DNA from: Jatrophihabitans sp.
GTDB lineage: Bacteria > Actinomycetota > Actinomycetes > Mycobacteriales > Jatrophihabitantaceae
NCBI GenBank assembly: GCA_036399055.1
Contig: DASWNX010000021.1
Coordinates: 96,841 to 160,840 of the forward strand
Reading direction: 5' to 3'
Length of the DNA stretch: 64,000 nt
Shown here: positions 28,529 to 44,500 of the stretch, piece by piece
Layout: each line of letters opens with the position of its first letter
Position numbering within the stretch: position 1 is the stretch's first letter
The notes under the pieces: generated by a model
Told to the model about the DNA's origin: nothing
What the model saw: only the letters and a program-made list of their open reading frames with translations
The model's database searches: none
Position numbers and translations under genes: made by a program

Positions 28529-28573
28529 CGGTGTCACCTCCTGTTCCTGGATCAGCGTGACTGATTAGCTAGG

Positions 28574-28597
28574 TCAGTGCCATTCGTAGTTGCGCAT
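28574..28597 (-). CDS. Seven-codon micro-ORF MRNYEWH
   Basis: ATG CGC AAC TAC GAA TGG CAC TGA on the minus strand with AGGAGG (28605-28610) 7 nt upstream. It differs from the second copy only at residue 4 (Tyr/Val). The MR...H form with aromatic residues recalls biarylitide precursors (MRYYH), the shortest known ribosomal peptide precursors, but no P450 gene is within this window. The divergent neighbour is the SUMF1-fold gene at 28788. Confidence 0.5.
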   Translation of the reverse strand: MRNYEWH

Positions 28598-28787
28598 GGT
28601 GTCACCTCCTGTTCCTGACCGGTCCATAGCCCACAGTCACTGCGCCACCGGGCGGCTCTGCTGGGACTGCGCCGGACGCCCGTCCATACGGTGGGCGCAT
28701 CCACGCCCGGGGACCGGAGGGCGAGGATTGTCGTGCAACCGGTCGCTACCGGTGTGTCAGTACGAAAATCGGTAGCATCACCGAATC

Positions 28788-29474
28788 GTGGGCATCGGCA
28801 CGGGAATCACCATGGTCGCTGTTCCGTCTGGGGACGTGACGATCTCGGATCGACGAACGCAGAGCAGCTGGAATGTCGGCGTCAAGGCTTACCTCCTCGG
28901 CGCTCATCCCATCACCCGGGCGACCTATTCCCAGGTCGCCGGTAGTCGACCGGGCAGCGCCCAGGCAGATCAACTGCCGGTCGAGACCGTCTCGTGGTTC
29001 AACGCGATTCGTTTCTGCAATGCCCTGTCCGAGCGGGAGGGGCTTGTGCCGGCCTATGACGTGCGCGCTCAGGATGGGCATGTCGAATGGGATGCCGAGG
29101 CTGACGGCTTTCGCCTGCCGACCGAGCCCGAATGGGAACACGCTTGTCGGGCCGGCACGACCGGCGCACGGTACGGCGAGCTCGACGACATCGCCTGGCA
29201 CCGCGCCAATTCCCATGGGCGAGCACACGATGTGGGCGGCAAGCAACCCAACGCCTGGGGCCTGTACGACATGCTCGGCAACGTCTGGGAATGGTGCTGG
29301 GACACTTACGATCCCGAGGTCTACGGCGACTACCGGGTGCTGCGTGGCGGCGGATGGTTCGATGAACACTGGAGCTGCCGAGCCTCGGTGCGGCGCCGCA
29401 GCCACCCCACATTCCAGATAGACGACGTCGGCTTTCGGGTCGCGCGAAGTGTCGCGCTGCCGTTCGCCCGTTGA
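28788..29474 (+). CDS. SUMF1/formylglycine-generating-enzyme fold protein
   Basis: 228 residues. An FGE-sulfatase domain: VSWFNAIRFCNALSEREGL, FRLPTEPEWEHACRAG, GLYDMLGNVWEWCWD, and C-terminal VLRGGGWFDEHWSCRAS...DVGFRVAR. In true formylglycine-generating enzymes two nearby cysteines bind copper; here only one (WSCRAS) is present, so another C-type-lectin-fold role is more likely. GTG 28788 is preceded by TAGCAT (28773-28778) and could be leaderless; ATG 28812 with CGGGA is the alternative. Divergent from the micro-ORFs. Confidence 0.85.
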   Translation: MGIGTGITMVAVPSGDVTISDRRTQSSWNVGVKAYLLGAHPITRATYSQVAGSRPGSAQADQLPVETVSWFNAIRFCNALSEREGLVPAYDVRAQDGHVEWDAEADGFRLPTEPEWEHACRAGTTGARYGELDDIAWHRANSHGRAHDVGGKQPNAWGLYDMLGNVWEWCWDTYDPEVYGDYRVLRGGGWFDEHWSCRASVRRRSHPTFQIDDVGFRVARSVALPFAR

Positions 29475-29683
29475 TCGCTAGTCGCGTGCTGCGAACGGGC
29501 TCATGTCGTGCATCACCAGGCGTCGGCTGACGCCCAGCCAACCCTTCGCGCGGCATCCTCCTAGCCGGATTGCAGGCTCGGTCTGCCCGGAGGCAAACCG
29601 ACCTGGAACCAGCGGGCTACGCCACGCTCGAACGGGTCCGGACGGCGAGCTAGCGGTCGGTGCTGGAGGTGCCGGCGCAGGGG

Positions 29684-30937
29684 CTATCCGAGCTCGTCGC
29701 GGCGGCGGGTCAGGTAGGCGGTTTCGGCGCTGTTGCCCGCCAGGTCGATGGCCCTGTCATACGCCGCGCGCGCGTCCTGGATGTGTCCCAGCCGGCGCAG
29801 CAGAGCGGCGCGGGTCGCGTGGTAGGCGTGATAGCCGGCCAACGGGCCTTCAAGACGGTCCACGGCCGCCAGGGCCACCTGCGGGCCGTCAAGCTCGGCG
29901 ACCGCGACGGCTCGATTGAGGGCGATGATGGGCGAGGCGTCGAGGCGGACGAGCTGGTCGTAGAGAGCGACGACCTGCGACCAGTCGGTGTCGCGGGCTG
30001 CGCGGGCGGAGGTGTGCACGGCGTTGATCGCCGCGAGGATCTGGTAGCGGCCCGGAGCCACCCCGGCGGCGCTGGCTGCTAGGCGCTCGCGCACCAGCCG
30101 GTGGCCCTCGGCGATCAGGTCTGAGTCCCAGGCCCCGCGGTCCTGCTCGTCGAGGGTGACCAGTTCACCGCTGGCCGAGACCCGGGCGGGGCGGCGGGCC
30201 TCGGTGAGCAGCATCAGCGCCAGCAGTCCGGCCACCTCCCCGTCGTCGGGCAGCAGTGCGCGGATCAAGCGAGTGAGCCGGATCGCCTCGGCGGTCAGGT
30301 CCGAACGCACGGGATCGGTGTCGGGGCCGGTCGCCAGGTAGCCCTCGTTGAAGACGAGGAAGAGGACGGCGAGCACGCCGGAGACGCGTGCCGGGAGCTC
30401 CTGCGCGGACGGCACTCGATAAGGGATGCCCGCCGCCTTGACCTTGGCCTTCGCACGGGTGATCCGCTGGGCCATGGTGGCCTCTTGCGCCAGGAAGGCA
30501 CGGGCGATCTCGGGCACGGACAGACCGCCGACCATGCGCAGCGTCAGCGCCACGCGGGCCTGCATCGCCAGCGCCGGGTGACAGCAGGTGAAGATCAGCC
30601 GGAGTCGCTCGTCGTCGATGGCGCCGGCGGCATCGGGAGGCTCTGCTGCGTTGTCCTCGTACAACATCTGAGCCTCCTTCTGCTTGTCGTAGCGCTTGCT
30701 CTCGCGGCGGATCCGGTCGATGGCCTTGCGGTTGGCGGTGGTGGTCAGCCACGCGCCCGGGTTGGGCGGTACGCCGTCGGCCGGCCACCGCACGACGGCG
30801 GTCGCGAACGCCTCGGCCGCGGCCTCCTCGGCGATGTCAAGGTCACCGAAGCGCCTGGTCAGGGCGGCGACCACCCGCGCCCACTCCTCGCGGTGGGCCT
30901 GGCTGATCGCCTCCTGGACGTCGGGCACGCCGCTCAC
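29684..30937 (-). CDS. ECF sigma factor with large C-terminal domain (ECF42-like)
   Basis: 417 residues. Sigma-70 region 2 (about 10-80: FGDLDIAEEAAAEAFATAVVRWP, NPGAWLTTTANRKAIDRIRR), region 4 (about 120-165: LSVPEIARAFLAQEATMAQRITRAKAK) and a long C-terminal helical/TPR-like domain (about 190-417). This architecture with an adjacent YCII/DGPF protein defines the ECF42 group, which lacks a classical anti-sigma factor; the C-terminal domain is thought to control activity. GTG 30937 overlaps the YCII stop (GTGA). Confidence 0.9.
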   Translation of the reverse strand: MSGVPDVQEAISQAHREEWARVVAALTRRFGDLDIAEEAAAEAFATAVVRWPADGVPPNPGAWLTTTANRKAIDRIRRESKRYDKQKEAQMLYEDNAAEPPDAAGAIDDERLRLIFTCCHPALAMQARVALTLRMVGGLSVPEIARAFLAQEATMAQRITRAKAKVKAAGIPYRVPSAQELPARVSGVLAVLFLVFNEGYLATGPDTDPVRSDLTAEAIRLTRLIRALLPDDGEVAGLLALMLLTEARRPARVSASGELVTLDEQDRGAWDSDLIAEGHRLVRERLAASAAGVAPGRYQILAAINAVHTSARAARDTDWSQVVALYDQLVRLDASPIIALNRAVAVAELDGPQVALAAVDRLEGPLAGYHAYHATRAALLRRLGHIQDARAAYDRAIDLAGNSAETAYLTRRRDELG

Positions 30938-31257
30938 AGGAACGGCCGCACCTCGATCTTGCGGTTGCACGCCTTCGACCCTTGAGTGGCGAGCTTGAGC
31001 GCCGCGTCGAGGTCGGCGGCCTCGATGATCCACAAGCCGGCGAGGTACTCCTTCGACTCCACGAAGGGCCCGTCGGTGACTATCGCCTCGCCACCTCGGT
31101 TGTCGATGACGGTGGCCGTGTCGGTCGCTCCAAGGCCACCAGCGAAAACCCAATGGCCTTCGGCCTTGAGCCGGTCATTGAACGCGTCGATGGCGGCCTC
31201 CTCGGTCGGGGTGTCCGGGCCGGTGCCGTCGTCGATCACGGAAACCAGGAACTGCAT
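30934..31257 (-). CDS. YCII-related (DGPF) protein, sigma-factor partner
   Basis: 107 residues. YCII-like fold with the DGPF motif in VTDGPFVESKEYLAG and a C-terminal IEVRPFL. Always found with ECF42 sigma factors; proposed to act in their signalling, mechanism unclear. AGGAG lies about 10 nt upstream of ATG 31257; the gene is translationally coupled to the sigma factor. Confidence 0.9.
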   Translation of the reverse strand: MQFLVSVIDDGTGPDTPTEEAAIDAFNDRLKAEGHWVFAGGLGATDTATVIDNRGGEAIVTDGPFVESKEYLAGLWIIEAADLDAALKLATQGSKACNRKIEVRPFL

Positions 31258-31410
31258 CTGAAGATCATCTCCTCTGGACCAGAGCGCCCCTCGCAGGCGC
31301 CGCTCACCCCTACTACGAACACCGCTCCCCCGATCCGACACCGTCGTCCGGAGATCTTTCAAGCACTTTCCTGCATCCGCTGGTCGAATGGTTGTGCGAG
31401 CATCGCAGCC

Positions 31411-31977
31411 ATGCTGGAGGAGCGACGCATTCGGACCCGGACGCCCGAGTGGCGAGCTGTTTACGACCGCATCCACGTCGCGATGGAACTGACCTCGCGT
31501 CTGAATGTGCTGCCATTCAGCGACATCGCCTCTCGACGTGCCTTGCTCGTCGAGCTTCTCGGTAAGCCGTTGCCCGAGACAGCCGTCGTCCACCCGCCGT
31601 TCTACAGCACCTACGGACTCGGGATCCAGCTCGGCGATCAGAGCTTCATCGGTCAGGCATGCTCGTTCCTCGACCTCGGCGGCATCACCATCGGCGACCG
31701 GGTGATGATCTCTCCGAAGGTCACTCTCGTCACGGAGGGGCATCCGGTCGTGCCTGCCGAGCGGTATGAGTTCATCACGGTGGCGCCGATCGTCATCGAA
31801 GCCGGCGCCTGGATCGGCGCGGCGGCCACCATCCTTCCTGGGGTGAGGATCGGTCATGACTCGGTCGTCGGAGCGGGTGCTGTCGTGGCCAAGGACGTGC
31901 CTCCGCTGACTGTCGTCTCGGCAGCTGGCTACGTCGAGCGCAGGCAGCTGGAGCCCGCGCCCGACTTACAGCTCTGA
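31411..31977 (+). CDS. Left-handed beta-helix acetyltransferase (maltose/galactoside O-acetyltransferase type)
   Basis: 188 residues. Hexapeptide repeats (IGQACSFLDLGGITIGDRVMISPKVTLV, VIEAGAWIGAAATILPGVRIGHDSVVGAGAVVAKDVP). The catalytic histidine is in TEGHPV. Uses acetyl-CoA to O-acetylate a sugar or small hydroxyl acceptor; here the acceptor is unknown. Divergent from the sigma/YCII pair. ATG 31411 is chosen by family N-terminus; there is no strong ribosome-binding site. Confidence 0.87.
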   Translation: MLEERRIRTRTPEWRAVYDRIHVAMELTSRLNVLPFSDIASRRALLVELLGKPLPETAVVHPPFYSTYGLGIQLGDQSFIGQACSFLDLGGITIGDRVMISPKVTLVTEGHPVVPAERYEFITVAPIVIEAGAWIGAAATILPGVRIGHDSVVGAGAVVAKDVPPLTVVSAAGYVERRQLEPAPDLQL

Positions 31978-32007
31978 GGCCAGGCGACGACTGGTTGCAG
32001 CACTACG

Positions 32008-32790
32008 GTGTCAGATGTGAATGAGCGGGTAACCGTCCCTGACCTGGCGCGATTGCTTGGGATGAGCCCAAGTGCCGTTCGCAAGGGCCTTCGCGAGCTG
32101 GCGCGCGCGTCCGATCCAGCCGTTGTCGGGCACGGGAGGGGACAGCCTTGGACATTAAATCCTGAGGACGCCGATGCGGTCGTGGCCCGGCTCAGTCCCC
32201 GAGCTGCCCAGTCGAAAGCTGCCCCGCGAACCGTTGAACTAACCACGGACCATCCGTCGCCGGGTGACGTGTCGGAGGCCCTCGCCACGTCAGCGCCCAG
32301 ATCTGCCGGCAGTCTTGATCGAGCGGCCGTGCCGGATCGAGCAGGCCTTTATGCGTGGTGGTCCGAGCCGACAGTGTTCGCCGACATCATTCACCGCCCC
32401 AGCGGCCCCACGACTAATCGCGGCTTGGAACTGGTCTACATCGGAATCGCGCGATCACTGCGTGAGCGCATCGATAACCACCTAGGCAGACACACCGGGA
32501 GGAGCACGCTTCGCCGTGTCCTGGGAGCGTGGATGGCCGGGTCACGGGGCTGGGACACCGAAGTTCGGGCCGGACGCCGACAACACGTTCCCGAATCCGA
32601 AGCTCTGCTCACCGAGTGGATGGGACGCACGCTCGCCCTAACCTGGACCTTGCACGAACGTCCAGCCGCTGTTGAGCGCGACGTCATTGCCTCGATGGGG
32701 CCGCCTCTCAACTTCGCCCACAATCGCGGACATCCAAACTGGCAACAGGTCGCGGAGCGCCGCCAGCAGTGGAACGAAGGATCCACATAG
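32008..32790 (+). CDS. Helix-turn-helix plus GIY-YIG nuclease-like protein
   Basis: 260 residues. N-terminal HTH (about 5-50: VPDLARLLGMSPSAVRKGLRELA), linker, then a GIY-YIG domain (about 110-250): GLYAWW and LVYIGIA form the two GIY-YIG strands, RERIDNHL the helix, and MGPPLNFAHN the C-terminal signature. Standalone proteins of this kind are uncharacterised; DNA binding with possible cleavage is inference. The start at 32008 (GTG) is uncertain. Confidence 0.78.
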   Translation: MSDVNERVTVPDLARLLGMSPSAVRKGLRELARASDPAVVGHGRGQPWTLNPEDADAVVARLSPRAAQSKAAPRTVELTTDHPSPGDVSEALATSAPRSAGSLDRAAVPDRAGLYAWWSEPTVFADIIHRPSGPTTNRGLELVYIGIARSLRERIDNHLGRHTGRSTLRRVLGAWMAGSRGWDTEVRAGRRQHVPESEALLTEWMGRTLALTWTLHERPAAVERDVIASMGPPLNFAHNRGHPNWQQVAERRQQWNEGST

Positions 32791-32957
32791 CCAGGCGGGA
32801 ACCGTCGATCGCGCACGTCGCGTTCGGCGGACCAGTGTGCAGGTCGGTCCGTGTGCGGCGGTCGAGCCGGGTTGGCCCGAGCTCGGACTCATCGGATGTA
32901 TGAGTCTTCGGTTCTACGCAAAAGCGGGCCGGACGCTGGAACCTGGCTCGACGTTGG

Positions 32958-35453
32958 TCAGGTACGACGCTTGGTGCGCGCGGTCGCCTCGGCGGTCAAC
33001 GGGTCCTCGGGCCACGGGTGCTTGGGGTAGCGAGCCCGCAGGTCGGCGCGCACCTGTGGGTAGCCCTGCCGCCAGAACGACGCCAGGTCCGCGGTGATAG
33101 CCACCGTGCGGCCGGCGGGCGAGAGCAGGTGCAGGACGACCGGGGCGCGCCCGTCCGCCAGCGCCGGAGTCTGGGTCCACCCGAAGGTCTCCTGCAGTTT
33201 CACCGCCACCACCGGCGGCTCGGCGCCGTCGTAGGCGACGCGGACCCGGGACCCGGACGGCACGAGCAGTCGCTCCGGCGCGAGCTCGTCCAACCGAGTC
33301 GCCGCCGGCCACGGCAGCAATCGGCGCAGCGCGGTGAGCACGTCGACGCGGCGCAGGTCGGCACTGCGCCGCACCGCGCTGATGTCCAGCCACTGGTCCA
33401 GACGCTCGAGCAGCGCGGCGTCGCCGACGTCGGGCCACGGGTCGCCGAGCACCGCGTGCAGAAAGCCGAGCCGGGCGCGCAGGTCGCGAGCGGCGTCGCT
33501 CCAGGTCAGCGCGGCCAAACCCCCGGCGCCCTGCGCGCGCAGCCCCTCGCGCACCGCGGCTTGCACGCGCAGCGGATCGGGGTTGCGCAGCGAGGCGGCC
33601 GATAGCTCGATCGCGCCGAAGCGTTCCACCCGTCGCGCGACGATGACGCCGTTGACCCAATCGATCTCCTCGGACGTGCTCAGCAGGTCGGCGGCCACGG
33701 CCCGGGCCGTGGACTCGTCGATCGGCGCCGCAGCCCGCACTCGCGCTTCGGCGCGGCCGGGCTGGCGGTCGGCCACAGCGATCGCGAGCCACGGTGCGCC
33801 TCGCAACGGTGATGATTCGGCAAGTTGCGCGCCGGTGCCGCCGGTCATCTGATAGCTGGCCGCGTCCGCCGCACGGGCACGCGCGATGCGATCGGGATAG
33901 GCCAGGCCGACGACGGCGCCCACCGCGAGGTCGTCCGACATCGCGGCCCGGCCCGGCCCGCCGCTGCCGAGCCGGCGCGCCTCCTGCCGCCACCGGCGCG
34001 CGGCGTCGCGGTCATGACCTTGGCGAAGTTCCCGGTAGCGGGCGGCTAAATCGTCGCCGCGACCGGTCAGCGAGTCGTCGGACAGCAGCGCCACCACCTC
34101 CCGCGCCCGCTCGGCGCCGACGAGTTCGGCGCCGTCGAGGACGGCGCGGGCCAGCCGCGGGTGCGCGCCCACAGCGGCCATCCGCTGGCCACGAGCGGTG
34201 ATGCGGCCTTGCGTGTCGGTCGCGTCGAGGCGGCGCAGCAGCCCGGTCGCGGCGTCAAGGGCAGCGGCCGGCGGCGGGTCGAGCAGTGCCAGCCCTTCGC
34301 CGCCCGGCGCTCCCCATGCGGCGGTCGTCAACGCGAACCCGGCAAGGTCGGCCGTGGCGATCTCGGGCAGCGCATGCGCCGCGAGGTGAACGTGCTCCTC
34401 GGGTGACCAGCAGCGGTAGGCGCGGCCCGGCGCCTCGCGTCCCGCCCGGCCGGCGCGCTGATCGGCCGACGCCTTCGACACTCGCGTGGTGATCAACGCG
34501 CCGAGCCCGCGTGCCTGGTCCGTGCGTGGCTCGCGCGCCAGCCCGGCGTCCACGACGGCTCGCACGCCGGGCACGGTCAACGAGCTCTCGGCCACCGACG
34601 TGGTGACGACGATTCTCCGCCTTGGCCCGGCGGTGAGCGCGAGGTCCTGCTCGGCGCGTGCCTGACGCCCAAACAGCGGGCGTACGTCGGCGTCCACTCC
34701 GTGCAGCGCCCGGGCGACGATGGCGATCTCCCGCTCGCCCGGCACGAAGACGAGCACGTCCCCATCGCCTTCGGCGAGCGCACGCCGGGTGACGTCGGCG
34801 ACGTGGTCGAGCAGTCGCGGGTCGACGCGCGAACCCGGCAGCAGCGGCAGCGGGCGCGACGGCGGGGCCCAAATCTTGTCAACCGGGTGCGTCGCCGCGG
34901 TCGCGGTGATGACGGGCGCGTCGAGCGCGCGGGTGAGCGCAGCCGTGTCCGGTGTCGCCGAGGTCGCCACCAGCGCGAGGTCGGCGCGCAGCGTGGCGCG
35001 GACGTCGACGCAGAAGGCCAGCAACAAGTCGGCGTCCAGATGGCGCTCGTGGCACTCGTCGATCACCACGGCGGCGACACCAGGCAGCTCGGGATCGCGC
35101 TGCATGCGCTGGACGAGCAGCCCGGTCGTCACCACCTCGATCCGCGTCTGCGCACCACCGACCTTCTCACCGCGCATGGCGTAACCGACGCGCCCGCCGG
35201 GCTGCTCGCCTAGCAGCTCGGCCAGCCTTCGGGCTGCGGCGCGGGTCGCGATCCGGCGCGGTTCGGCGACCACGATGTGTCCGTCGAAAGAGTCGGCGAG
35301 CGCGAGCGGCAGGAGTGAGGTCTTGCCAGATCCAGGTGGGGAGACAAGGACCGCTTTACCGGTGCTGTGAAGGGCGGAGATCGTCTCCGGCAGCACCGCC
35401 CGAACCGGGAGATCCGCGCCGGGCACTTCGGGCGGTGGCAGCAAGGACGGCAC
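32958..35453 (-). CDS. hrpB: ATP-dependent helicase HrpB
   Basis: 831 residues. DEAH-family helicase: Walker A PPGSGKTS near residue 40, DECHER motif II, ATSATPD motif III, VTTSVAESSLT, QRAGRAGR motif VI, and the HrpB C-terminal domain (final 130 residues with WP..TRLDELAPERLLVPSG). Role unknown, often linked to RNA metabolism. GTG 35453 is preceded by TAGCCT at leaderless distance. Confidence 0.93.
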   Translation of the reverse strand: MPSLLPPPEVPGADLPVRAVLPETISALHSTGKAVLVSPPGSGKTSLLPLALADSFDGHIVVAEPRRIATRAAARRLAELLGEQPGGRVGYAMRGEKVGGAQTRIEVVTTGLLVQRMQRDPELPGVAAVVIDECHERHLDADLLLAFCVDVRATLRADLALVATSATPDTAALTRALDAPVITATAATHPVDKIWAPPSRPLPLLPGSRVDPRLLDHVADVTRRALAEGDGDVLVFVPGEREIAIVARALHGVDADVRPLFGRQARAEQDLALTAGPRRRIVVTTSVAESSLTVPGVRAVVDAGLAREPRTDQARGLGALITTRVSKASADQRAGRAGREAPGRAYRCWSPEEHVHLAAHALPEIATADLAGFALTTAAWGAPGGEGLALLDPPPAAALDAATGLLRRLDATDTQGRITARGQRMAAVGAHPRLARAVLDGAELVGAERAREVVALLSDDSLTGRGDDLAARYRELRQGHDRDAARRWRQEARRLGSGGPGRAAMSDDLAVGAVVGLAYPDRIARARAADAASYQMTGGTGAQLAESSPLRGAPWLAIAVADRQPGRAEARVRAAAPIDESTARAVAADLLSTSEEIDWVNGVIVARRVERFGAIELSAASLRNPDPLRVQAAVREGLRAQGAGGLAALTWSDAARDLRARLGFLHAVLGDPWPDVGDAALLERLDQWLDISAVRRSADLRRVDVLTALRRLLPWPAATRLDELAPERLLVPSGSRVRVAYDGAEPPVVAVKLQETFGWTQTPALADGRAPVVLHLLSPAGRTVAITADLASFWRQGYPQVRADLRARYPKHPWPEDPLTAEATARTKRRT

Positions 35454-35459
35454 ACCGCG

Positions 35460-35465
35460 AGGCTA
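35460..35465 (-). promoter_or_regulatory. Putative -10 of a leaderless hrpB transcript
   Basis: TAGCCT on the minus strand with 6 nt to the GTG at 35453. The same hexamer precedes cbs at nearly the same distance. Confidence 0.45.
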
Positions 35466-35724
35466 GCCGTGCGGCGCAAGGCGCTAGCCGGCTAGCCTCG
35501 CGTGCGCCCGGCAGCCGTATTTCCACTTGCGGAGATGCTGGTACCCGCCAGCACGCCTGAACCCACTCATTAGCGTAAACACGAGCCTGCCCGTCGATAG
35601 AGCGCATTTCGCTTGGTTTGATAACCCTTATCATGCACGCGGCGGGCCTATTTTTCCCCCACGCTTGGGTGTGTGTTAGAAGAGGTAGGTCTCCTATACT
35701 CCGTCGCAAGCCCGGGAGAACCGG

Positions 35725-35835
35725 ATGGCATTTGACGTCGGATTGCATCCGTGGTTGATGCACTCTCTTCAGCAACATCCGTACCAGCAGCCGGGCACTG
35801 GTTTTCTGCGGTTGCACGTCGAGCCTGCAGGGTAA
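35725..35835 (+). CDS. Possible 36-residue ORF
   Basis: ATG with GGGAGAACC immediately upstream and a TATACT hexamer (35695-35700) about 25 nt before the start. The peptide is His/Gln/Pro-rich with no recognised motif. It ends within the operator-like repeat before the next gene. The rest of the 410-nt gap after hrpB (35454-35863) shows nothing else convincing. Confidence 0.3.
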   Translation: MAFDVGLHPWLMHSLQQHPYQQPGTGFLRLHVEPAG

Positions 35836-35857
35836 CGAGTGATTACCATTGTAGGTT
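35831..35857 (+). promoter_or_regulatory. Inverted repeat and -10 upstream of the 178-residue gene
   Basis: GGTAA (35831-35835) and TTACC (35843-35847) form a small operator-like inverted repeat; TAGGTT (35852-35857) then lies 6 nt from the ATG at 35864, suggesting a leaderless transcript controlled by a repressor or activator. Confidence 0.4.
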
Positions 35858-35863
35858 TGCGAC

Positions 35864-36400
35864 ATGGGACTACACTTCACCGAACTCGACGATGCGACGC
35901 GTCGCTACATGGTCGCTGAGTTCGACGCCGATTTGATAAGTGGCGACCTCTACAACAGCGTGTGGTTCACCGACCGAGCCCGTATCGACTACCCGGAGCT
36001 CTGCCGGATTGCCCTGACGTCCGGAACCGATGACAGTCTCACCACTGTGCTTAGCGTGCCCGGGATGTTTGTTACGGACTATCAGAAACGAAAGCCAAAA
36101 GGCGGCTTCACGACCGCCTCTGTCCCTTTCACTGCACCTGCGACCTTCGCCGAAGGCGAGTTCGGCCGATTTTACCTGCGTGGTTTGTGCCTGAGGTTGC
36201 TCGATGAGGGAACCGATCAGGTCGAGATTTATCGGGCGAAACAGGTAGCTAATCCCCGATCGGCATCGAATCTGTTGATTGGTACCGCTGTCGATCCCAC
36301 CGCTCTCCTGGCCGACCTGCGGACCAGCACCGGTATTGATACGGCACTAGGCCTCCCACCGGGCCCAAACTCGGGCCTGAGCGGCATGCGACGCCAGTGA
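35864..36400 (+). CDS. Conserved-looking protein of unknown function
   Basis: 178 residues, soluble, no signal or TM. It opens FTELDDATRRYMVAEFDADL and contains SVWFTDRARIDYPELC and a domain ending LLADLRTSTGID. Codon use and composition fit a real gene, slightly less GC-rich than the housekeeping regions. I recognise no family. It lies at the edge of the Ubl island, transcribed toward it. Confidence 0.65.
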   Translation: MGLHFTELDDATRRYMVAEFDADLISGDLYNSVWFTDRARIDYPELCRIALTSGTDDSLTTVLSVPGMFVTDYQKRKPKGGFTTASVPFTAPATFAEGEFGRFYLRGLCLRLLDEGTDQVEIYRAKQVANPRSASNLLIGTAVDPTALLADLRTSTGIDTALGLPPGPNSGLSGMRRQ

Positions 36401-36501
36401 CGTTTTCCCCTCTCTGCCAGCGAGGCCCGTACGGCACTTTGCCTTGATGAGTTGTTTGAGCAACTGCATCGGCGCGGTTGCGTTCATGCCGCCAGGGTGG
36501 C

Positions 36502-36720
36502 TTAGCCGTCACTAATGATTGTGAAGCGCACTATCTGCTCAAGGACGTCGGCGACCACCGATGCCCCGGCAGATCCGTCGTGTTCCCCTGGCGGTGTCGA
36601 GATCGCGGAAGAGCTCGATGATGTATGAGTTCGACCGGTAGAGGAAGAAGGCTGGCTCCTCGCCCAGTCGTCACCACCTCGGGTGGCTGGCCGCGGCACG
36701 CGCAGATCGGGCCACCTTCA
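36502..36720 (-). pseudogene. Possible decayed gene fragment
   Basis: Two minus-strand frames each carry protein-like pieces that join only through frameshifts: EEPAFFLYRSNSYIIELFRDLDT in one frame and SAGASVVADVLEQIVRFTIISDG ending at a stop (36502) in the other. No start codon is usable for the first piece. Looks like the C-terminus of a lost protein; identity unknown. Confidence 0.35.
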
Positions 36721-36939
36721 GAGACCGAGTTCGCCTAATACCTTCGCGACAGGCATGTCGTACTCGGCGTGCATCCACATCGCTCCACCGGCGGCGAGGA
36801 TGGTGTAGACGCCGGAGTTCCTGCGGATGCCGAAGATCCCGACGATGACATAGCTCGCGACGACAGCTGCGACGACGGCAACAGCTGCGTGGGCCAGGCC
36901 TTTTGCGAAGGCGTCGGGCTGGGACTGATCCTTGGCCAT
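36718..36939 (-). CDS. Small two-TM membrane protein
   Basis: 73 residues: helix at about 17-38 (AHAAVAVVAAVVASYVIVG) and a second at about 43-58. No family recognised. The ATG at 36939 has GAGAGA about 8 nt upstream. It lies 292 nt downstream of the JAB-E1 gene on the same strand, so membership in the Ubl operon is possible but unproven; the gap (36940-37231) holds no convincing ORF or hairpin. Confidence 0.65.
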   Translation of the reverse strand: MAKDQSQPDAFAKGLAHAAVAVVAAVVASYVIVGIFGIRRNSGVYTILAAGGAMWMHAEYDMPVAKVLGELGL

Positions 36940-37231
36940 GGTGGTATCTCTCTTTCTGGGGTCAGGACTTGGGGGCGTGGCGGCGTGGATGAAGACGGTG
37001 CTGAGTTCTTGGGCGCGTTGGGTGACTAGCTAGGTGAAGTTGCATCGTCGTGTCGTGGCATAGCAGTACGCCTGCGAAAAGGCCAAGCGAGGATGGTTCC
37101 GACCTGTCGGATCACTCTGACGGGTTGGGGACCGATCGCTAGCAATGAGTTAGGTAGCCACCCCGAAAGCGTCGGCTCCGTTCACGGCTGGGCTCCGCGG
37201 TGTCCTTGTATTAGCCGAGGGGCCGTGGCGC

Positions 37232-38713
37232 TCACCTGAGTCGCACCCCGGCTATTGGCTGGCTGCCGCCGCGGGCGAAGGCCGAGGTCGTGTTCGTCGA
37301 ACATGTCGTGCACATCTCCGAGCGCCGGGGGGCGATGCGCGCCCACTTGCCGCGGCGGGCGATGAGCCGGTGGTGCACGACATCCGTCTGCTCACTGAGG
37401 CCGGTCAGCGACATCATCAGCTCCGAGACGGCCGGGGCGACGGCGAGCGCGTTGAGCGCCGCGACCGCTGGGGCTGGCTCGCCCGTTCCGTAGTCGGCCG
37501 CGCGGCGCAGGGAGTCCGGAAGGGCCTCCCGAGCCAGCGCGGTGTGGTCGATGAGACCCTGGCAATCCAGGCATCCGGTCTCGGGCATCACCATGCGGCT
37601 CACGGCGTGGACGATGCCGATGACTCCGTCCTGGTCGACGTCGACCTTGACGCCGACCTGGGTGGCGGGAATCAAGTACTGGTGCACGAGCTTGTTCACG
37701 ACCAGCCGAGCCGTCGCGGTGTCTGCGGCGAGCATGATCCAGTCGCAAGTCGTGAGCGCGGCGGCTGCCTCGGGCTCGGATACGTCGAACTGGTACTGCT
37801 TAACCCGCACGGTCGGGTTGGCCCGACGGGCGGCGCGCGCTGCGATCGACGTCTTAAATCTGGTCCGGTTACCCAGCCACCGACGTGCCGGGGCCGGCAG
37901 CAAGTTCCAGGGGCGGCGGGTGAGCCATGTGAACGCGTCGAGAGGGCGAGAGCCGATGAGCCGCGGCAGGTTGTGAATCTCAACCCTGTCGTCGTCGATG
38001 ACCACGATCTCGCCGACGCCGAGCCGGGCGAGCAGTTCAACGATGAGGCTTCCGGCTCCGCCGGCGCCGACGACGCCAATTCTGGTGCGGGCGAGGATGG
38101 CGCGGCCAGCGACGCCGAACAGGCGCGCCTGGCGGTCGTCACCGACGTTGTCGTTGAGCCCGGGCCGAGGCGAGGGGTACAGCGTCCTGATATTCGGCCC
38201 AATGACGGTGGTCATCGCGAGCGAAGCCCGGCCGCCGTCGGGCTGCCAGATGTCCCCGGCGACGGCGTGGTCAGTGATGACTAGGGCTCCGACGGGCAGG
38301 CCACCTGCGATGTCGAGCAGGGCGCCGTAGCCGCTTTCGTGGGAGTCGAAGTCGACGGAGCTGAATCCCACGGACTGGCCGTGGTTGCCGTGGCCATGGA
38401 CCATGAGGACCGTCCAGCTCTCGCGGCGGGCGCGCTTGGTCATTCGGGTGAGGAAGGCGGGCGTGAGCGCCCGGTATCCAGTCGTGCCGGGGACGTAGTC
38501 GACGCCGTCAACAGCAGGAACGAACTCACGGGCGAGGAGTACCGGCCCTTCGGGTCGATCGGCGATACCACAAATCAGGACACCGCCGTGCTCGTCGTGG
38601 TCGCCGCGGTTGATGTACTCGGCCATCGCATTCCAGACGCCCTGTCCGATGCGTAAGGACCACGAAGGTGCGGACATGGCGGGAATGCGGTCGTCGTCGA
38701 ACGGTTCGGTCAT
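37232..38713 (-). CDS. JAB/MPN peptidase fused to an E1-like ThiF adenylyltransferase
   Basis: 493 residues. Residues about 15-165: JAB domain with EHGGVLICG and the metal site region MVHGHGNHG...SSVDFDS. Residues about 205-470: E1/ThiF domain with GVVGAGGAGSLIVELLARLG and IVVIDDDRVEIHNLPR (ATP-binding), and two CxxC pairs (CLDC, CTTC) expected to hold zinc. It would adenylate the C-terminus of the Ubl and also trim or remove it. Its ATG overlaps the E2 stop (ATGA at 38710-38713). Fused JAB-E1 proteins are known from predicted bacterial Ubl operons. Confidence 0.9.
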   Translation of the reverse strand: MTEPFDDDRIPAMSAPSWSLRIGQGVWNAMAEYINRGDHDEHGGVLICGIADRPEGPVLLAREFVPAVDGVDYVPGTTGYRALTPAFLTRMTKRARRESWTVLMVHGHGNHGQSVGFSSVDFDSHESGYGALLDIAGGLPVGALVITDHAVAGDIWQPDGGRASLAMTTVIGPNIRTLYPSPRPGLNDNVGDDRQARLFGVAGRAILARTRIGVVGAGGAGSLIVELLARLGVGEIVVIDDDRVEIHNLPRLIGSRPLDAFTWLTRRPWNLLPAPARRWLGNRTRFKTSIAARAARRANPTVRVKQYQFDVSEPEAAAALTTCDWIMLAADTATARLVVNKLVHQYLIPATQVGVKVDVDQDGVIGIVHAVSRMVMPETGCLDCQGLIDHTALAREALPDSLRRAADYGTGEPAPAVAALNALAVAPAVSELMMSLTGLSEQTDVVHHRLIARRGKWARIAPRRSEMCTTCSTNTTSAFARGGSQPIAGVRLR

Positions 38714-39213
38714 CCCGAGTTCCTGACGGTGGCGAGCACGCGCGCGAGCTTGCGGGCAGGGGAGTCGATGTTAGGGTCGCGACCGTTACTGCTGAGGCTG
38801 ACCATCACCGCAGGCTCGGTGAACCAGGACTGGTTCTGGTGCATGAAGTTTTGGCCGGCGGCGTTGGTCTTGCCGATCGGGCCACCGTCGATCCGAGCGA
38901 GGTCCGGGCGCACCCAGACTGGGTAGATGTCGCCGTCCGGCACCGTGTGCGGGACGTGGAACGCGACCCATGTGACCGATTGCTCGAAGGGCACACCTAG
39001 GTCGATGCTTTCGATGAACACGTGGGCACCACCGTTCCCGTCGGGCCAGTGGATCAAGTGACCGGGCACCTGCTGCTCGATCGCGGTGATCGCTGACTCG
39101 ACGGCTGGCGTGATCGCGGCGGCCGGCGCGGCGGCCGCGAGCGTACCGACGCGCTGCGCGGTCGCCACACACACGTCGTCAGCTGCGCTGGTGGAGGCGA
39201 TGGCGATGGTCAT
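38710..39213 (-). CDS. Prokaryotic E2-like (UBC-fold) protein
   Basis: 167 residues. The central pattern GAHVFIESIDLGVPFEQSVTW..FHVPHTVPDGDIYPVWVRPDLARIDG, followed by PAVMVSLSSNGRDP, matches prokaryotic E2 families. It should accept the activated Ubl from the E1. The only cysteine is residue 15, outside the fold core. It starts 5 nt after the Ubl stop and overlaps the JAB-E1 start, so the three are one translational unit. Confidence 0.8.
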   Translation of the reverse strand: MTIAIASTSAADDVCVATAQRVGTLAAAAPAAAITPAVESAITAIEQQVPGHLIHWPDGNGGAHVFIESIDLGVPFEQSVTWVAFHVPHTVPDGDIYPVWVRPDLARIDGGPIGKTNAAGQNFMHQNQSWFTEPAVMVSLSSNGRDPNIDSPARKLARVLATVRNSG

Positions 39214-39218
39214 GATCG

Positions 39219-39638
39219 TCAGGAGTTGTCGTCGGGCTTGACGGCGGTGAAGCAGTCGCCGTCGTGGACGGTCCAGTACTCGTCGTCGCCGATGGTGTGC
39301 TCGGCGTCCTTGCCGGCCCGCTCGACGGTGAGGTGGAAGTTGAGCTGGATGTTGGGGATGACGGCGGTGATCGCCTGCTCCTTGATCTCAAGGCCGGTCA
39401 GCCGCACGCCGTGCAGCGTGAGCGGGTGGTAGTTCATCTCCACCCGATGCTCGTGCTTCGGCGAGGGCCGAGGGTGGTCGTGCTGCAGGTCACGCGCGAA
39501 CTGCTTTTCGTCACGATCAAGTTCGGCCCCGACTTGCCGCAGGTGTTCCTCGTCGCGCTCGATGGCGCGCGGGTCGTCCTCGACGCGCCGGCCTGAGTTG
39601 TGGACCGGATCGAAGTCGGGCTGGGATGCTGCATTCAT
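39219..39638 (-). CDS. Ubiquitin-like protein of the multiubiquitin family
   Basis: 139 residues: a charged N-terminal half (about 15-55, likely coiled coil, ERDEEHLRQVGAELDRDEKQ) and one beta-grasp domain (about 62-139) with GLEIKEQAI, IQLNFHLTVER and the ending FTAVKPDDNS, typical of multiubiquitin domains. There is no terminal Gly-Gly; the conjugated residue is unknown. AGGAGA lies 8 nt upstream of ATG 39638. First gene of the Ubl-E2-JAB/E1 operon. Confidence 0.85.
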   Translation of the reverse strand: MNAASQPDFDPVHNSGRRVEDDPRAIERDEEHLRQVGAELDRDEKQFARDLQHDHPRPSPKHEHRVEMNYHPLTLHGVRLTGLEIKEQAITAVIPNIQLNFHLTVERAGKDAEHTIGDDEYWTVHDGDCFTAVKPDDNS

Positions 39639-39679
39639 GATCTTGTTCTCCTGTACTTGACGGGGTCCGAATCTTCATC

Positions 39680-39703
39680 GGTTTCATCGTACTCCATGAA
39701 ACC
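39680..39703. promoter_or_regulatory. Operator between the Ubl operon and the GHKL/STAS pair
   Basis: A perfect inverted repeat GGTTTCAT-8 nt-ATGAAACC in the 101-bp divergent intergenic region, with an additional TTCATCG direct repeat on its left. On the plus strand it ends 1 nt before TAGAAT (39705-39710), a likely -10; TTTCAT at 39682-39687 could be the -35, so the bound protein would occlude that promoter, and it also lies in the region expected to hold the Ubl promoter. Confidence 0.7.
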
Positions 39704-39739
39704 GTAGAATATGATTCCTCTCGTGTCAAAACAGCGTCG

Positions 39740-40663
39740 ATGCGGCGGCATCTCCTCAATGCGAGGGACACTTCTGCGGTGGAACTGGTGTTAGTCGGGG
39801 ACCGGCCTCTCGCCGAGGCCGCGTTTTTGTCTGGCTCCGGGACGGATAACCTCGTAATCGACGCGGCGAAGTTGAGCTTCGCGTGCCCCCTGGACCTGGC
39901 TGGCATAGTCGCTACCGCGCATTGGGCCGCCGGCGGCGCAATCCGCGTCACCCTAAAGCTCCCGTCTGATCCGGCGGCGACGGCCTACCTGCAACGTATG
40001 GACGTCCTGCGCCAGATGCCTGCGCGTACGCAGATCGTGGGCCGAGTCCCACCAGATGCTCGGACGGACCATCACGGCAGTCTCATGGAAGTAACTGCGC
40101 TCAACGAGAGGAACGTCGACGACCTGTCCGAGCGACTCGGCCCGCTCGTGACCGGGTTCTATAAGGATGGCTCCAAAGCGGGCGCGGCGGTGTTTCGAGC
40201 GTGCAGCGAACTCATGAGCAATGCAACGGAACACGGGCTTAGCGAGCGGGGAGCCTTCATGGCCGTCCAACTCCACACCGGGCGCACTACCGGGTCGCCT
40301 CGACTGGAGTTCGCGGTGTGCGACACGGGCATTGGGGTCATGAACCACCTGCGCCAGAACCCCAGGCATGCGCACCTCACTAGAGATGAGGTGGCGATCG
40401 CGAAGGCTATTCGAGCAGGCGTGAGCGGGGTCAAGTCAGAGCTGCGTGGCAACGGCTTGAGTGACGCCATCTCAGACACCAGCCGCTACGGACGCGTCGA
40501 CTTCCAGATCCGCTCCGGGAAGGGCGAGGTCAGGGTCGCGGGCGGCCCCGAAAGTCGTAGAACATCATCGAGCGGCCGTCCCGATCAGACGAGCGGTACC
40601 TGGGCGTGGCTCACCCACCACTTGCCGAGCGAGCGTCAGACTGTGGTTCAATCGAGACAATGA
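39740..40663 (+). CDS. GHKL-type ATP-binding protein (anti-sigma/histidine-kinase ATPase fold)
   Basis: 307 residues. Residues 1-120: STAS-like region; 120-260: HATPase with N-box E157..N161 (ACSELMSNATEHG), G1 box CDTGIG (194-199) and G2 RGNGL. No phospho-acceptor histidine domain. Paired with the STAS/DUF4325 gene 13 nt downstream, a recurring couple in accessory DNA, probably a signalling switch. The C-terminal 40 residues, overlying the second operator, look unstructured. Confidence 0.82.
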   Translation: MRRHLLNARDTSAVELVLVGDRPLAEAAFLSGSGTDNLVIDAAKLSFACPLDLAGIVATAHWAAGGAIRVTLKLPSDPAATAYLQRMDVLRQMPARTQIVGRVPPDARTDHHGSLMEVTALNERNVDDLSERLGPLVTGFYKDGSKAGAAVFRACSELMSNATEHGLSERGAFMAVQLHTGRTTGSPRLEFAVCDTGIGVMNHLRQNPRHAHLTRDEVAIAKAIRAGVSGVKSELRGNGLSDAISDTSRYGRVDFQIRSGKGEVRVAGGPESRRTSSSGRPDQTSGTWAWLTHHLPSERQTVVQSRQ

Positions 40664-40667
40664 AACC
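40645..40667. promoter_or_regulatory. Second operator copy upstream of the STAS-winged-helix gene
   Basis: GGTTCAAT-7 nt-ATGAAACC, the same right half-site as the operator at 39680 and a one-indel variant of the left half. It overlaps the end of the GHKL gene and ends 9 nt before the ATG at 40677, so it could control that gene separately. Confidence 0.6.
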
Positions 40668-40676
40668 GGAGAAGCC

Positions 40677-41255
40677 ATGACTCAGTCAGCCAGTTTCGAT
40701 GTCGTGCAACTTGCTAACTGGCCGGCCACGCGCGGCCTTGGGCAGGATGGCCGAGCCCGCCTAGATGATCTTTTGGGCGAGCGCGAAGGCGTCGATCTGG
40801 TGATCGACTTCGCCGGCGTAGAGGCCATGAACATCAGCTTCGCGGACGAGTTCCTTGGGAAGTTCCTCGCGTCTCATGACTTCTCGACCAACGGCACGAC
40901 TGTCAAGCTCGCCGGTTTGAACGCGGACAACCTCTATACCGTGGTCGTCTGCGTCGAACGGCGTGGGACGCAGGTAGTCGTAGTAGAGCCAGATGGCAAC
41001 CTTGCCCTCGTTGGCGAGAAGATGCTAGCTGATACCTTCGACAAGGCTCTAACGCTTGGGAAGTTCAAGGCGAATGACCTCGCCGTTGCACTGTCGCTCA
41101 CCGCGCAAAACGCCAACAACCGCCTGAAGCGGTTGGCTCAAGCCGGTGCGATCCGCAAGGCCCAGGTGACGGGGTCCACCCGCGGTGGCAGGGAGTACAT
41201 GTACGAAGTCCTGCCGTCCGAGGTAGCAGACCCCGCACAGCTCACGTCCGCCTAA
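40677..41255 (+). CDS. STAS-like (DUF4325) protein with C-terminal winged helix
   Basis: 192 residues. N-terminal STAS-like domain (about 5-100: VDLVIDFAGVEAMNISFADEFLG) and a winged helix-turn-helix (about 125-180: ALSLTAQNANNRLKRLAQAGAIRKA, then RGGREYMYEVL). Likely the DNA-binding partner of the GHKL ATPase and the best candidate to bind the two operators. The ATG at 40677 has GGAGA 5 nt upstream; the longer frame is not supported. Confidence 0.82.
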   Translation: MTQSASFDVVQLANWPATRGLGQDGRARLDDLLGEREGVDLVIDFAGVEAMNISFADEFLGKFLASHDFSTNGTTVKLAGLNADNLYTVVVCVERRGTQVVVVEPDGNLALVGEKMLADTFDKALTLGKFKANDLAVALSLTAQNANNRLKRLAQAGAIRKAQVTGSTRGGREYMYEVLPSEVADPAQLTSA

Positions 41256-41565
41256 GCGAGCCCTCTCAAAGCTAATTGACATTGTTCGCGTCGGGTAGTG
41301 ACGGACGCGTCCTGGTAGCCAGCGCGCATAACGAGGCCTTCGCCCGCGATACCGGCAAACGTGAGTGAGCGCGTAGTCGGTGTTATGCGCGTGAGGCTGT
41401 GCCTGAACCGCACTCCGATCCGTGAGCCGATCAGGTGCCGTCCGCGATTCCACGGTGCCCGCCATGTGCTGAACTTCGGACAACTTCGAATCCGGCGGCT
41501 CGAAGTGGGGACAACAGCCACTCCAACCTAACGGCATCCAGCCGGCAGCATTGAGCAAGCCCGGC
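41256..41565. other. Intergenic region between the Ubl-island regulator and mfd
   Basis: 310 nt between convergent genes. It contains a pair of similar CTTCGAA/CTCGAAG-GGGACAAC segments (about 41476-41519) that look like worn repeat ends, but no inverted repeat, transposase or ORF. I see no clear terminator. Confidence 0.4.
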
Positions 41566-44500
41566 TCAGTTGGCCAGCACGGCCCGCAGCACCGGCCCGA
41601 GAATGGCCTCCAGCAAATCAGCGCACCAGGTCAGCAGCGGCTGGTCGCGCAACGGCTCGCCGCCGAACTTGGCCTCGGCCCAGCTGCCGTCGGGCTTGAC
41701 CACGCCCTTGGGACGAGCAGCCGCCATGGTCGACACCGCCGGCTTGTAGACGGTCTTCTCATACGTGCGCTGCAGCCGGACCTGAGCCGACTCGGGCAGC
41801 AGCACCGGCGAGAACCGCACCGACTGGCCCTGCAGCGACACCTCGGTGATGCCGAACTTGCGGCACACCACCTTGAACCGGGCCACCGCCAGCAGGTTGT
41901 CCACCTCCAGCGGCATCGGGCCGAACCGGTCCAGCAGCTCCAGCCGCACCGCGTCGACCGCCTCGTCGGTGGTGGCGTTGGCCAGCGCCCGGTAGGCCTC
42001 CAGCCGCAGCCGCTCGCCGGGCAGGTAGTCCTGCGGCAGGTTGGCGTTGACCGGCAGGTCGACCTTGACCTCGCTGAACTGCTCCTGCTCCTCGCCGCGG
42101 AACTCCGAGACCGCCTCGCCGACCAGCCGGACGTAGAGGTCGAAGCCCACCCCGGCGATGTGGCCGGACTGCTCGCCACCTAAAAGGTTCCCGGCTCCGC
42201 GTATTTCCAAGTCCTTCATCGCCACCTGCATGCCGGCGCCGAGCTCGGTGTGCTGGGCGATGGTGGCCAGCCGGTCATGGGCCAGCTCGGTGAGCGGCTT
42301 CTCCGGCGGGTAGAGGAAGTAGGCGTAGCCGCGTTCGCGGGCCCGGCCGACCCGGCCGCGCATCTGGTGCAGCTGGGACAGCCCGAAGGTGTCGGCCCGG
42401 TCCACGATCAGGGTGTTGGCGTTGGGGATGTCCAGGCCGGACTCGACGATGGTCGTCGAGACCAGCACGTCGAAGTCGTTCTGCCAGAACCCCACCATGA
42501 TCTTCTCCAGCGCGTCCTGGCCCATCTGCCCGTGCGCCACGGCGATCCGGGCCTCGGGAACGAGCTCGGCGAGCTTGGCCGCAGTGCGGTTGATGGACTC
42601 GACCCGGTTGTGGATGAAGAACACCTGGCCGTCACGCAGCAGCTCGCGCCGGATCGCCGCCGAGATCTGGCGCGGGTCATAGGCGCCGACGAAGGTCAGG
42701 ATCGGGTGCCGCTCCTCCGGCGGCGTGAGGATCGTGGTCATCTCCCGGATGCCGGTCAGCGACATCTCCAGGGTCCGCGGGATCGGGGTCGCCGACATCG
42801 TCAGCACGTCGACGGCGGTGCGCATCGACTTCAGGTACTCCTTGTGCTCCACCCCGAAGCGCTGCTCCTCATCCACCACGACCAGGCCCAGGTCCTTGAA
42901 CCGGACGGTCTGCTGCAACAGCCGGTGGGTGCCGATCACGATGTCGACGCTGCCGTCGGCGATGCCGGCCAGGATCTGGTCGACGTCGGCGGCGTGGGTG
43001 AACCGGGACAGCTCCTTGATGGTCACCGGGAACTGGTTCATCCGGCCGGCGAAGGTCTGGATGTGCTGGTGGGCCAGCAGCGTCGTCGGCACCAGCACGG
43101 CCACCTGCTTGCCGTCCTGCACGGCCTTGAACGCCGCCCGCACCGCGACCTCCGTCTTGCCGTAGCCGACGTCGCCGCAAATCACCCGGTCCATCGGCAG
43201 CTCTTTCTCCATGTCTGCCTTGACCTCGTCGATGGCCGCCATCTGATCAGGCGTCTCGACATAGGGAAACGCGTCTTCGAGTTCGCGCTGCCACGGGGTG
43301 TCCGGGCCGAAGGCGTAGCCCCGGGTGGCCATCCGCGCCGAGTACAGCCGGATCAGCTCGGCGGCGATCTCCTTGACGGCCTTGCGGGCCCGGCCCTTGG
43401 TCTTGGCCCAGTCCGCGCCGCCGAGCCGCGACAGCGAGGGCGCCTCGCCGCCGACGTACTTGGTGACCTGGTCCAGAGAGTCGGTCGGCACGAACAGCCG
43501 GTCACCCGGCTGGCCCTTCTTGGCCGCGGCGTACTCGATGATCAAGTACTCGCGCTCGCCGCCGTTGACGGTGCGGCGCACCATCTCGACGTAGCGGCCC
43601 ACCCCGTGCTGCTCGTGCACCACGAAGTCCCCGGAGGCCAGCTGGATCGGGTCGATCGCGTTGCGCCGCCGGGACGGCATCCGGGACTTGTCCATCGCCG
43701 TGGTGCCGCGCTGGCCGGTCAGGTCGGACTCGGTGAGGATGGCCAGCTTCAGCTCGGCCGAGACCAGCCCGGACTCCAGCTGGCCGGTGGTGACGGTGAC
43801 AACGCCGGCGTCGAGCTTGTCGATGCCGGGCGCCATCCGGGCCGCGATGTCGGCGGCGAGCAGCCGTTCCAGTGCCCGCTCGGCGCTGCCGTGGCCCTGG
43901 AAGACCAGTGCCAGCCGCCAGCCCTCGCGGGCCCAGTCGCCGATGTCGCCGAGCAGCGACTCGGTGTCGCCGCGGTAGGTCGGGGCCGCTTCGAAGGACG
44001 AGTCGACGGCGGCGATGCTCTGGATGTCGGAGCCGGCGACCAGCTCGTTGTCGGTGCTGAACGGCGACAGCGACCACCACGGGATGCCCAGCTCGATAGC
44101 CGCGTCGCGGACCTCGTCCAGCGAGCGCAGCGACGCCGAGCCGAGATCGACCGGCGCCTTGCCGCCGCCGGCGGCAGCGGCCCAGGACGCGGCCAGGAAC
44201 TCCTCCGAGGTCGCGACCAGGTCAGCCGCCCGGGCCCGGACCCGTTCGGGGTCGCAGACCAGCACCGAGGCGCCAGGCGGAAACTCCTCGAGCACCAGGC
44301 GCAGCTCGTCGACCAGGACCGGGGCGAGGGACTCCATGCCCTCTACCTGGATGCCCAGGCTGATCGGCTCGAGCAGCTCGCCGAGTTCGGGATGCTCGGT
44401 CAGCAACGCCGCGGCGCGGGCCCGGACCGACTCGGTCAGCATCATCTCCCGGCACGGCGGCGCCCACACCCCGCCAGTGGCGATCTCGAGCGAGCGCTGG

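What the first reader, a model, noticed from the sequence alone, without database searches (positions are those of the whole stretch)
37232..39638. Compact ubiquitin-like conjugation operon: Ubl, E2 and fused JAB-E1
Three tightly spaced genes encode a multiubiquitin-type Ubl (ending AVKPDDNS), a prokaryotic E2 and a JAB peptidase fused to an E1-type ThiF. Related bacterial systems (Bil, Bub and predicted operons) include antiphage functions. The one-protein combination of activating and deconjugating enzymes, the coiled-coil extension on the Ubl, and the regulator below make this a strong candidate for a poorly described variant.
Basis: partly seen in the sequence, partly recalled or inferred. 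Interest (0 to 1): 0.8.

Follow-up and report, generated by a model that had tools for sequence, protein, structure and literature searches.

The report
Ubiquitin-like operon with serine-ended tag
An actinobacterium carries a compact bacterial relative of the ubiquitin system whose small protein tag ends in serine instead of the usual glycine, beside a probable stress-sensing switch; the gene layout is known, but the serine ending, shared by relatives in several phyla, may be new and is easy to test.

Summary
In detail: three minus-strand genes encode a ubiquitin-like protein (Ubl), a diverged Prok-E2_E protein and a JAB-ThiF (E1) fusion. JAB fused to the E1 N-terminus, with one to three Ubl domains and a cysteine-less E2, is operon type 6e of Iyer 2006, now called Bub; fused BubCD has solved structures and is the best PDB match (E 3.6e-19). 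The divergent neighbours are homologues of CapK and CapS, a published kinase-repressor pair found beside Bub operons. What looks new: the operon belongs to a distinct E1 group (15 loci, four phyla; split support 100/99) whose Ubls all end in serine (D[DE]NS in 14 of 15), where 16 of 16 readable Ubls that I fetched outside the group have glycine. The group lacks DUF6527 (0 of 15) and has no invariant cysteine beyond two CxxC pairs in the E1, so a thioester cascade is unlikely. CapS keeps its phospho-serine and DNA-contact residues; CapK keeps its kinase asparagine but not the published ssDNA-sensing tryptophan. Close CapK/CapS relatives flank Bil operons in two other actinobacteria. Conjugation, induction and phage defence are untested. 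The two key Bub papers were not held, so earlier description cannot be excluded.

The parts
39219..39638 (-). Ubl (BubA-like): about 60-residue charged N-terminal extension, then one beta-grasp-type domain
39222..39233 (-). codons of the conserved Ubl end D-D-N-S (residues 136-139)
   Evidence: Ser-ended in 15 of 15 group loci, D[DE]NS in 14
39483..39572 (-). predicted helix in the Ubl N-terminal extension (residues 23-52)
   Evidence: single-sequence model, block pLDDT 67-80
38710..39213 (-). E2 (BubB-like, Prok-E2_E relative), no conserved cysteine
38797..38799 (-). codon of E2 Ser139, invariant in 15 of 15 group E2s and aligned with the Ser invariant in 7 non-group E2s
37232..38713 (-). JAB-E1 fusion (BubCD-like): JAB at about residues 25-127, ThiF at 193-441
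39679..39704 (.). palindrome CGGTTTCAT-N8-ATGAAACCG between the divergent units, proposed CapS operator
39740..40663 (+). CapK-like STAS-GHKL kinase without the N-terminal HTH
40644..40667 (.). second, imperfect operator-like site (3 mismatches) just before capS
40677..41255 (+). CapS-like STAS-wHTH protein (Ser54, Asn145, Lys151, Gly170-Gly171)
26097..41566 (.). variable stretch beside mfd that holds the operon (0.7 to 4.4 kb in three congeners)

Best explanation
A Bub-type (type 6e) ubiquitin-like conjugation operon of a distinct, serine-ended group, under a divergent CapK/CapS switch. Proposed working: at rest a CapS dimer holds the palindrome between the two transcription units and the site before capS and represses both. 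On stress, the GHKL domain of CapK phosphorylates CapS Ser54, the dimer parts, and the operon is expressed. The E1 domain adenylates the C-terminal carboxylate of the Ubl, which is a serine (Ubl residue 139). The acyl group passes to a hydroxyl of the E2, most likely E2 Ser139, since no cysteine is conserved there, and then to target proteins. The JAB domain of the same protein removes it. Shown here: gene order, family relationship, conserved residues, the serine end, the operator-like sequences. Inferred from published homologues: the kinase-repressor switch. Inferred only: every chemical step, the targets and the cellular role.
For: E1 matches BubCD along residues 24-435. H106, H108, S118, D121 of the JAB and G216, G219, G221, R251, K287, D324, D331 of the ThiF part are invariant in 21 E1s (14 group, 7 non-group). 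The Ubl ends in Ser in 15 of 15 group loci, each time 9 residues after a Phe/Tyr, and Ser is coded by TCN as well as AGY, so selection is on the protein. 16 of 16 readable non-group Ubls that I fetched have Gly there, at exactly Phe+9 in 13 (my reading of the tails printed). Only C381, C384, C468 and C471 are Cys in 14 of 14 complete group E1s; no Cys is shared in E2 or Ubl. CapS S54, N145, K151 and the GG pair and CapK N218 are conserved. The operator core has one perfect copy in 4,528,719 bases; a shorter copy of the palindrome lies in the same gap in Janibacter, and half-sites stand before capS in Janibacter and G453.
Against: No biochemistry. E2-like domains of type 6e were predicted to be inactive for want of cysteine. 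After E2 Ser139 the window has Leu where the 14 other group E2s have Arg. C323 of the E1 is Cys in 12 of 14. The JAMM glutamate E41 is not in the list of residues invariant over all 21 E1s, though all 12 group E1s aligned have it. CapK W68, K237, K239, tied or predicted to be tied to ssDNA in the published CapK, are P, T, R here. The published CapS half-site TTAA does not occur in 39600-40760. A perfect inverted repeat with arms of 9 or more and spacer up to 12 occurs in 4.1% of random 181-bp stretches of the window, so the palindrome alone is weak; its place and second copy carry the weight. G453 has no exact intergenic match.
Confidence: 0.55

Rival explanations
1. The Ubl is not conjugated. 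The E2 is a dead binding module and the Ubl works non-covalently or by self-assembly in a stress response.
For: No shared cysteine in E2; type 6e E2-like domains were predicted inactive; the usual terminal Gly is absent.
Against: E2 Ser139 is invariant inside and outside the group; JAB and adenylation residues are kept in all E1s compared, unexpected if nothing is attached or removed.
Confidence: 0.2
2. The E1 modifies the Ubl end itself, in the way MccB modifies a peptide end or ThiF/MoeB serve sulfur carriers, and no transfer to proteins takes place.
For: ThiF and MccB are among the sequence matches of the E1; the end is conserved but not glycine.
Against: The full-length match is to BubCD, while ThiF/MccB match only the nucleotide-binding part; an E2 and a JAB are always present in the 15 loci. 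The MccB precedent is recalled.
Confidence: 0.1
3. The DDNS end is trimmed by the JAB domain and another residue is the one used.
For: JAB residues are intact; some non-group Ubls have tails after Gly (L010, L014, L064).
Against: 10 of 15 group Ubls have no Gly in their last 10 residues, and the end itself is the conserved part.
Confidence: 0.1
4. The window copy is a decaying member of a working group.
For: Window E2 departs from the SR motif of the 14 others; window JAB loop is one residue longer than in most.
Against: All five ORFs are open; E1 invariant residues, the Ubl end, CapS and CapK kinase residues are kept.
Confidence: 0.05

Closest known systems
Bub (bacterial ubiquitination-like) operons; type 6e of Iyer 2006; solved Citrobacter BubCD and BubB
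   Same: Ubl, E2-like and JAB-E1 in one operon; JAB at the E1 N-terminus; E2 without catalytic Cys; shared E2 Ser; stress-switch genes next door
   Different: Ubl ends in Ser, not Gly; no DUF6527 found (0 of 15 loci, against 6 of 7 non-group loci scanned); E1 on a long separate branch; E2 called 'hypothetical' in 9 of 9 group records shown
CapK + CapS (PMC13373217)
   Same: STAS-GHKL and STAS-wHTH genes next to a Ubl operon; CapS Ser54 and DNA-contact residues; CapK Asn218; one site before the operon and one before capS
   Different: Divergent from the operon; no HTH on CapK; Trp68 is Pro; operator half-site TTTCAT/ATGAAA instead of TTAA
Bil operons (BilA-D)
   Same: Ubl, E2, JAB and E1 genes; the Janibacter and G453 Bil operons have close relatives of this CapK/CapS pair
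   Different: Separate JAB and E1 proteins; window E1, E2 and Ubl show no useful match to the Janibacter E1, JAB and Ubl

Membership tests
Bub / type 6e | E1-like protein, usually with JAB fused at the N-terminus | tested here: met
Bub / type 6e | one to three Multi_ubiq-type Ubl domains | tested here: met
   by profile only: hhalign 96.9%; no Pfam hit alone
Bub / type 6e | E2-like domain without the catalytic cysteine | tested here: met
Bub / type 6e | glycine at the Ubl end or before its tail | tested here: not met
   Ser in 15 of 15; Gly in 16 of 16 non-group Ubls read. I have no source that makes Gly a requirement for Bub
Bub / type 6e | additional zinc-finger-like gene (DUF6527), seen in many operons | tested here: not met
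   0 of 15 group loci in the DNA held (window 31.0-46.0 kb); that DUF6527 is the 2006 zinc-finger gene is my inference
Bub / type 6e | covalent attachment of the Ubl | not testable with these tools
   needs biochemistry
CapK + CapS | CapS: STAS + wHTH with the phosphorylated Ser and DNA-contact residues | tested here: met
CapK + CapS | CapK: STAS + GHKL kinase with active-site Asn | tested here: met
CapK + CapS | CapK: N-terminal HTH | tested here: not met
   absent; deleting it had no effect in the published assay
CapK + CapS | CapK: Trp68 needed for ssDNA activation | tested here: not met
   Pro in window and Janibacter in a three-row alignment
CapK + CapS | induction by DNA damage | not testable with these tools
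   needs a reporter
known anti-phage systems | match to a named defence system | tested here: inconclusive
   only distant E1-E2 models for the E1; nothing for Ubl or E2

The most novel reading that the evidence does not exclude
A group of bacterial ubiquitin-like systems, found here in four phyla, has replaced the terminal glycine of its Ubl by serine and runs an E1-E2 cascade without cysteine on it; in this window it is wired to a CapK/CapS switch whose input differs from the published single-stranded-DNA pocket.
Probability: 0.42. Interest if true: 0.75.

Novelty: new variant of a known kind. Interest (0 to 1): 0.52.

Why it matters
The activated Ubls that I know of nearly all end in glycine (recalled). 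A conserved serine-ended family with its own E1, E2 and JAB asks how strict that rule is, how an E1 pocket and a JAB accept a side chain, and whether hydroxyl acyl intermediates can carry a whole cascade. It is a small three-gene set that can be expressed and tested directly. The comparison also shows one switch module beside two different Ubl systems (Bub-type here, Bil in Janibacter and G453).

Tried and rejected
Tried without gain: E1 alignment against viral contigs (none confirmed); phage records (none); genome-contig scan (one distant Planctomycetota locus, L010); single-sequence Ubl model (mean pLDDT 51) and two-row E2 model (mean pLDDT 41), both too poor, so no fold search was run.

Considered and rejected: (1) a long JAB loop (HxH-x8-S) as a mark of the group; the group has 8 (12 loci), 9 (window) and 11 (two), but non-group loops overlap these: 7 in most, also 6, 8 and 9, and one pattern match of 12. 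(2) Loss of DUF6527 as the reason for the tail change: L002 also lacks it and has Gly. (3) The JAB-E1 fusion as new.

Rows dropped before counts: L020 (same plasmid as L011), L025 (Nostoc commune, E1 match covers only its last two thirds), L024 from the E1 cysteine and invariance counts (short E1), L057 from the Gly count (Ubl not readable), L043 not used. The Ubl profile used 12 of 15 Ubls (L017, L022, L023 left out, L011 cut to its last domain). The tree and E1 counts used 7 non-group E1s; the 8 fetched later (L057-L064) and L041 were not added. The DUF6527 profile was built from six proteins, five of whose loci are among its six positives; only L039 is independent. 117 of 157 plasmid records were not listed and not looked at.

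Papers seen: PMC13373217 (abstract, outline, sections 7, 9, 11, 12, passages of others); PMC1779556 (section 14 and passages); PMC12687455 (two passages). Ye 2026 and Gong 2025 on Bub are not held. Library searches that could have shown the serine-ended group; I saw their listings only, and nothing there named it.

Full report
What is there. Three minus-strand genes, Ubl (39219-39638), E2 (38710-39213) and JAB-E1 (37232-38713), are 5 bp apart and overlap by 4 bp. The E1 has a ThiF domain (E 2.9e-30) and a weak Prok-JAB match (E 0.042), and aligns over residues 24-435 with solved Citrobacter BubCD, a JAB-E1 fusion (E 3.6e-19). The E2 and the Ubl are not recognised on their own. As family profiles they match non-group Prok-E2_E (96.6%, E 5.8e-10) and Multi_ubiq sequences (96.9%, E 1.8e-10).

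The layout is known. [quoted passage not shown] Later work uses the name Bub (PMC13373217).

Relatives. An E1 match at E 1e-20 or better occurs in 5 of 101 relatives, own genome included (one of them, G071/L014, turned out to be a non-group operon), and at 1e-40 in 5 of 394 genomes of the class, own included. Among plasmids 157 records match; of the 40 listed, ten lie at 38.2-47.1% identity and thirty at 31.4% or less. A search with the Nostoc E1 at E 1e-30 returns exactly those ten. I compared 15 loci of the close group: window, L011, L012, L013, L016-L019, L021-L024 and L030-L032. Nine of the 15 are plasmid-borne, but I searched a plasmid collection, so that is no rate. With seven more distant E1s the 15 form one side of a branch with support 100/99 and length 1.31; three outside rows have long branches and there is no outgroup, so this is a split, not a rooted clade.

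The serine end. All 15 Ubls end in Ser, 14 in D[DE]NS and one in HEDS; Ser is coded by TCC, TCG, TCA, AGT and AGC, Asp and Asn codons vary, and Phe or Tyr stands at position -10 in all 15. Of 17 non-group Ubl rows fetched, 16 are readable and all 16 have Gly at or next to that place: at Phe+9 in 13, one residue off or doubtful in L061 and L064, and without a Phe to count from in L034 (my reading of the tails printed; not a scripted count). Seven of the 16 end exactly there, the others go on as a tail or a fused E2. In 10 of the 15 group Ubls the last ten residues hold no Gly. So the tail length is kept and the last residue is exchanged. The non-group sample is small and is not the whole family.

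No thioester chemistry. In the 14 complete group E1s C381, C384, C468 and C471 are always Cys: two CxxC pairs, most likely zinc ligands. C323 is Cys in 12 of 14, and 7 of 14 have a Cys where the window has Ala95. No Cys is shared in E2 or Ubl. E2 Ser139 is invariant in 15 of 15 and aligns with the Ser invariant in seven non-group E2s. A hydroxyl acceptor is the natural guess. I recall, but could not read, a claim of ester intermediates for Bub; I do not count it as evidence.

DUF6527. A profile built from six such proteins finds the gene at 6 of 7 non-group loci scanned (not L002) and at 0 of 15 group loci in the DNA held. Five of the six positives gave sequences to the profile; L039 is independent. 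By annotation it also stands in L041, L058-L060 and L062-L064, and is not listed in L057, L061 or L043.

The regulator. Plus-strand genes 39740-40663 and 40677-41255 encode a STAS-GHKL and a STAS-wHTH protein. The first matches the gene before WP_001567865 on an E. roggenkampii plasmid (26%, 1e-6); WP_001567865 is the CapS named in PMC13373217, and a Bub operon with DUF6527 follows it there. The second matches 9z71 (E 3.6e-5), 184 residues long as that CapS is. CapS S54, N145, K151 and the GG pair are kept, as is CapK N218; CapK W68, K237 and K239 are P, T and R (three-row alignment). The HTH is missing; in the published assay its loss had no effect. So the output side of the switch looks intact and the input side may differ.

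Operator. Between the divergent units lies CGGTTTCAT-N8-ATGAAACCG (39679-39704). Its 24-base core has one perfect copy in 4,528,719 bases; four more sites have three mismatches, one of them at 40644-40667 just before capS; the backward control pattern has two. Janibacter has TTTCAT-N8-ATGAAA in the same gap and ATGAAACC before capS. G453 has the half-site before capS but no exact intergenic match. The published half-site is TTAA, absent here.

One switch, two systems. The nearest CapK relatives found, on a Janibacter melonis plasmid (63%) and in G453 (66%), stand divergent to Bil operons: BilA, BilC and BilD models match in Janibacter, and the G453 genes match the Janibacter ones at 54-60%. 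At E 1e-15 this CapK occurs in 2 of 394 genomes of the class and in 1 of 96 genomes around G453. Of the 14 other group loci, 12 have next to the Ubl a gene with an HEXXH motif, annotated ImmA/IrrE in several and mostly with an HTH gene or domain; L016 has an HTH gene only, and L023 a helicase that itself holds HEIGH. HEXXH alone does not prove a peptidase. The window is the only one of the 15 in which I found CapK/CapS.

Context. Between homologous blocks ending near window 26.1 kb and starting at the mfd end (41566) the window has 15.5 kb; the three congeners fetched (of eight) have about 0.7 kb (G007), 1.1 kb (G004) and 4.4 kb (G002, with an SNF2 helicase). The operon lies in a variable stretch beside mfd. 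Of ten proteins of this stretch scanned with PADLOC only the HrpB-type helicase had a hit, a weak GajB one.

Verdict. Real, ordinary in layout, unusual in its Ubl end. A role in defence or stress is open; PMC13373217 says that Bub operons have not been shown to protect against phage (passage).

Noticed in passing
L002 / L015 (G000 contig C29, about 278-280 kb): The same genome holds a second Bub-type operon (Multi_ubiq, Prok-E2_E, JAB-ThiF) with a Gly-ended Ubl and no DUF6527 found, just after an SMC-like ATPase gene that matches defence ATPase models.
   Followed up: partly
L033 2152-6498 and L067: Bil operons of a Janibacter melonis plasmid and of G453 have a divergent CapK/CapS pair of the window's subfamily.
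   Followed up: partly
window 26097-41566: Variable stretch next to mfd; a sister species has there an SNF2 helicase and a 559-aa protein without a Pfam match.
   Followed up: partly
L041, L042, L059, L064: Rhizobial non-group Bub operons carry a gene annotated 'phosphotransferase' between E1 and DUF6527.
   Followed up: no
L061 2339-5377: A haloarchaeal plasmid (Halorarius litoreus) encodes a protein that reads as Ubl fused to E2 after an acidic helical-looking stretch, then a ThiF protein and a KTSC-domain protein: a Bub-like layout in an archaeon.
   Followed up: no
window 36718-36939 (-): A 73-aa ORF downstream of the operon with a hydrophobic stretch and a weak SLATT_1 match (E 0.072); possibly a small membrane protein.
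   Followed up: no
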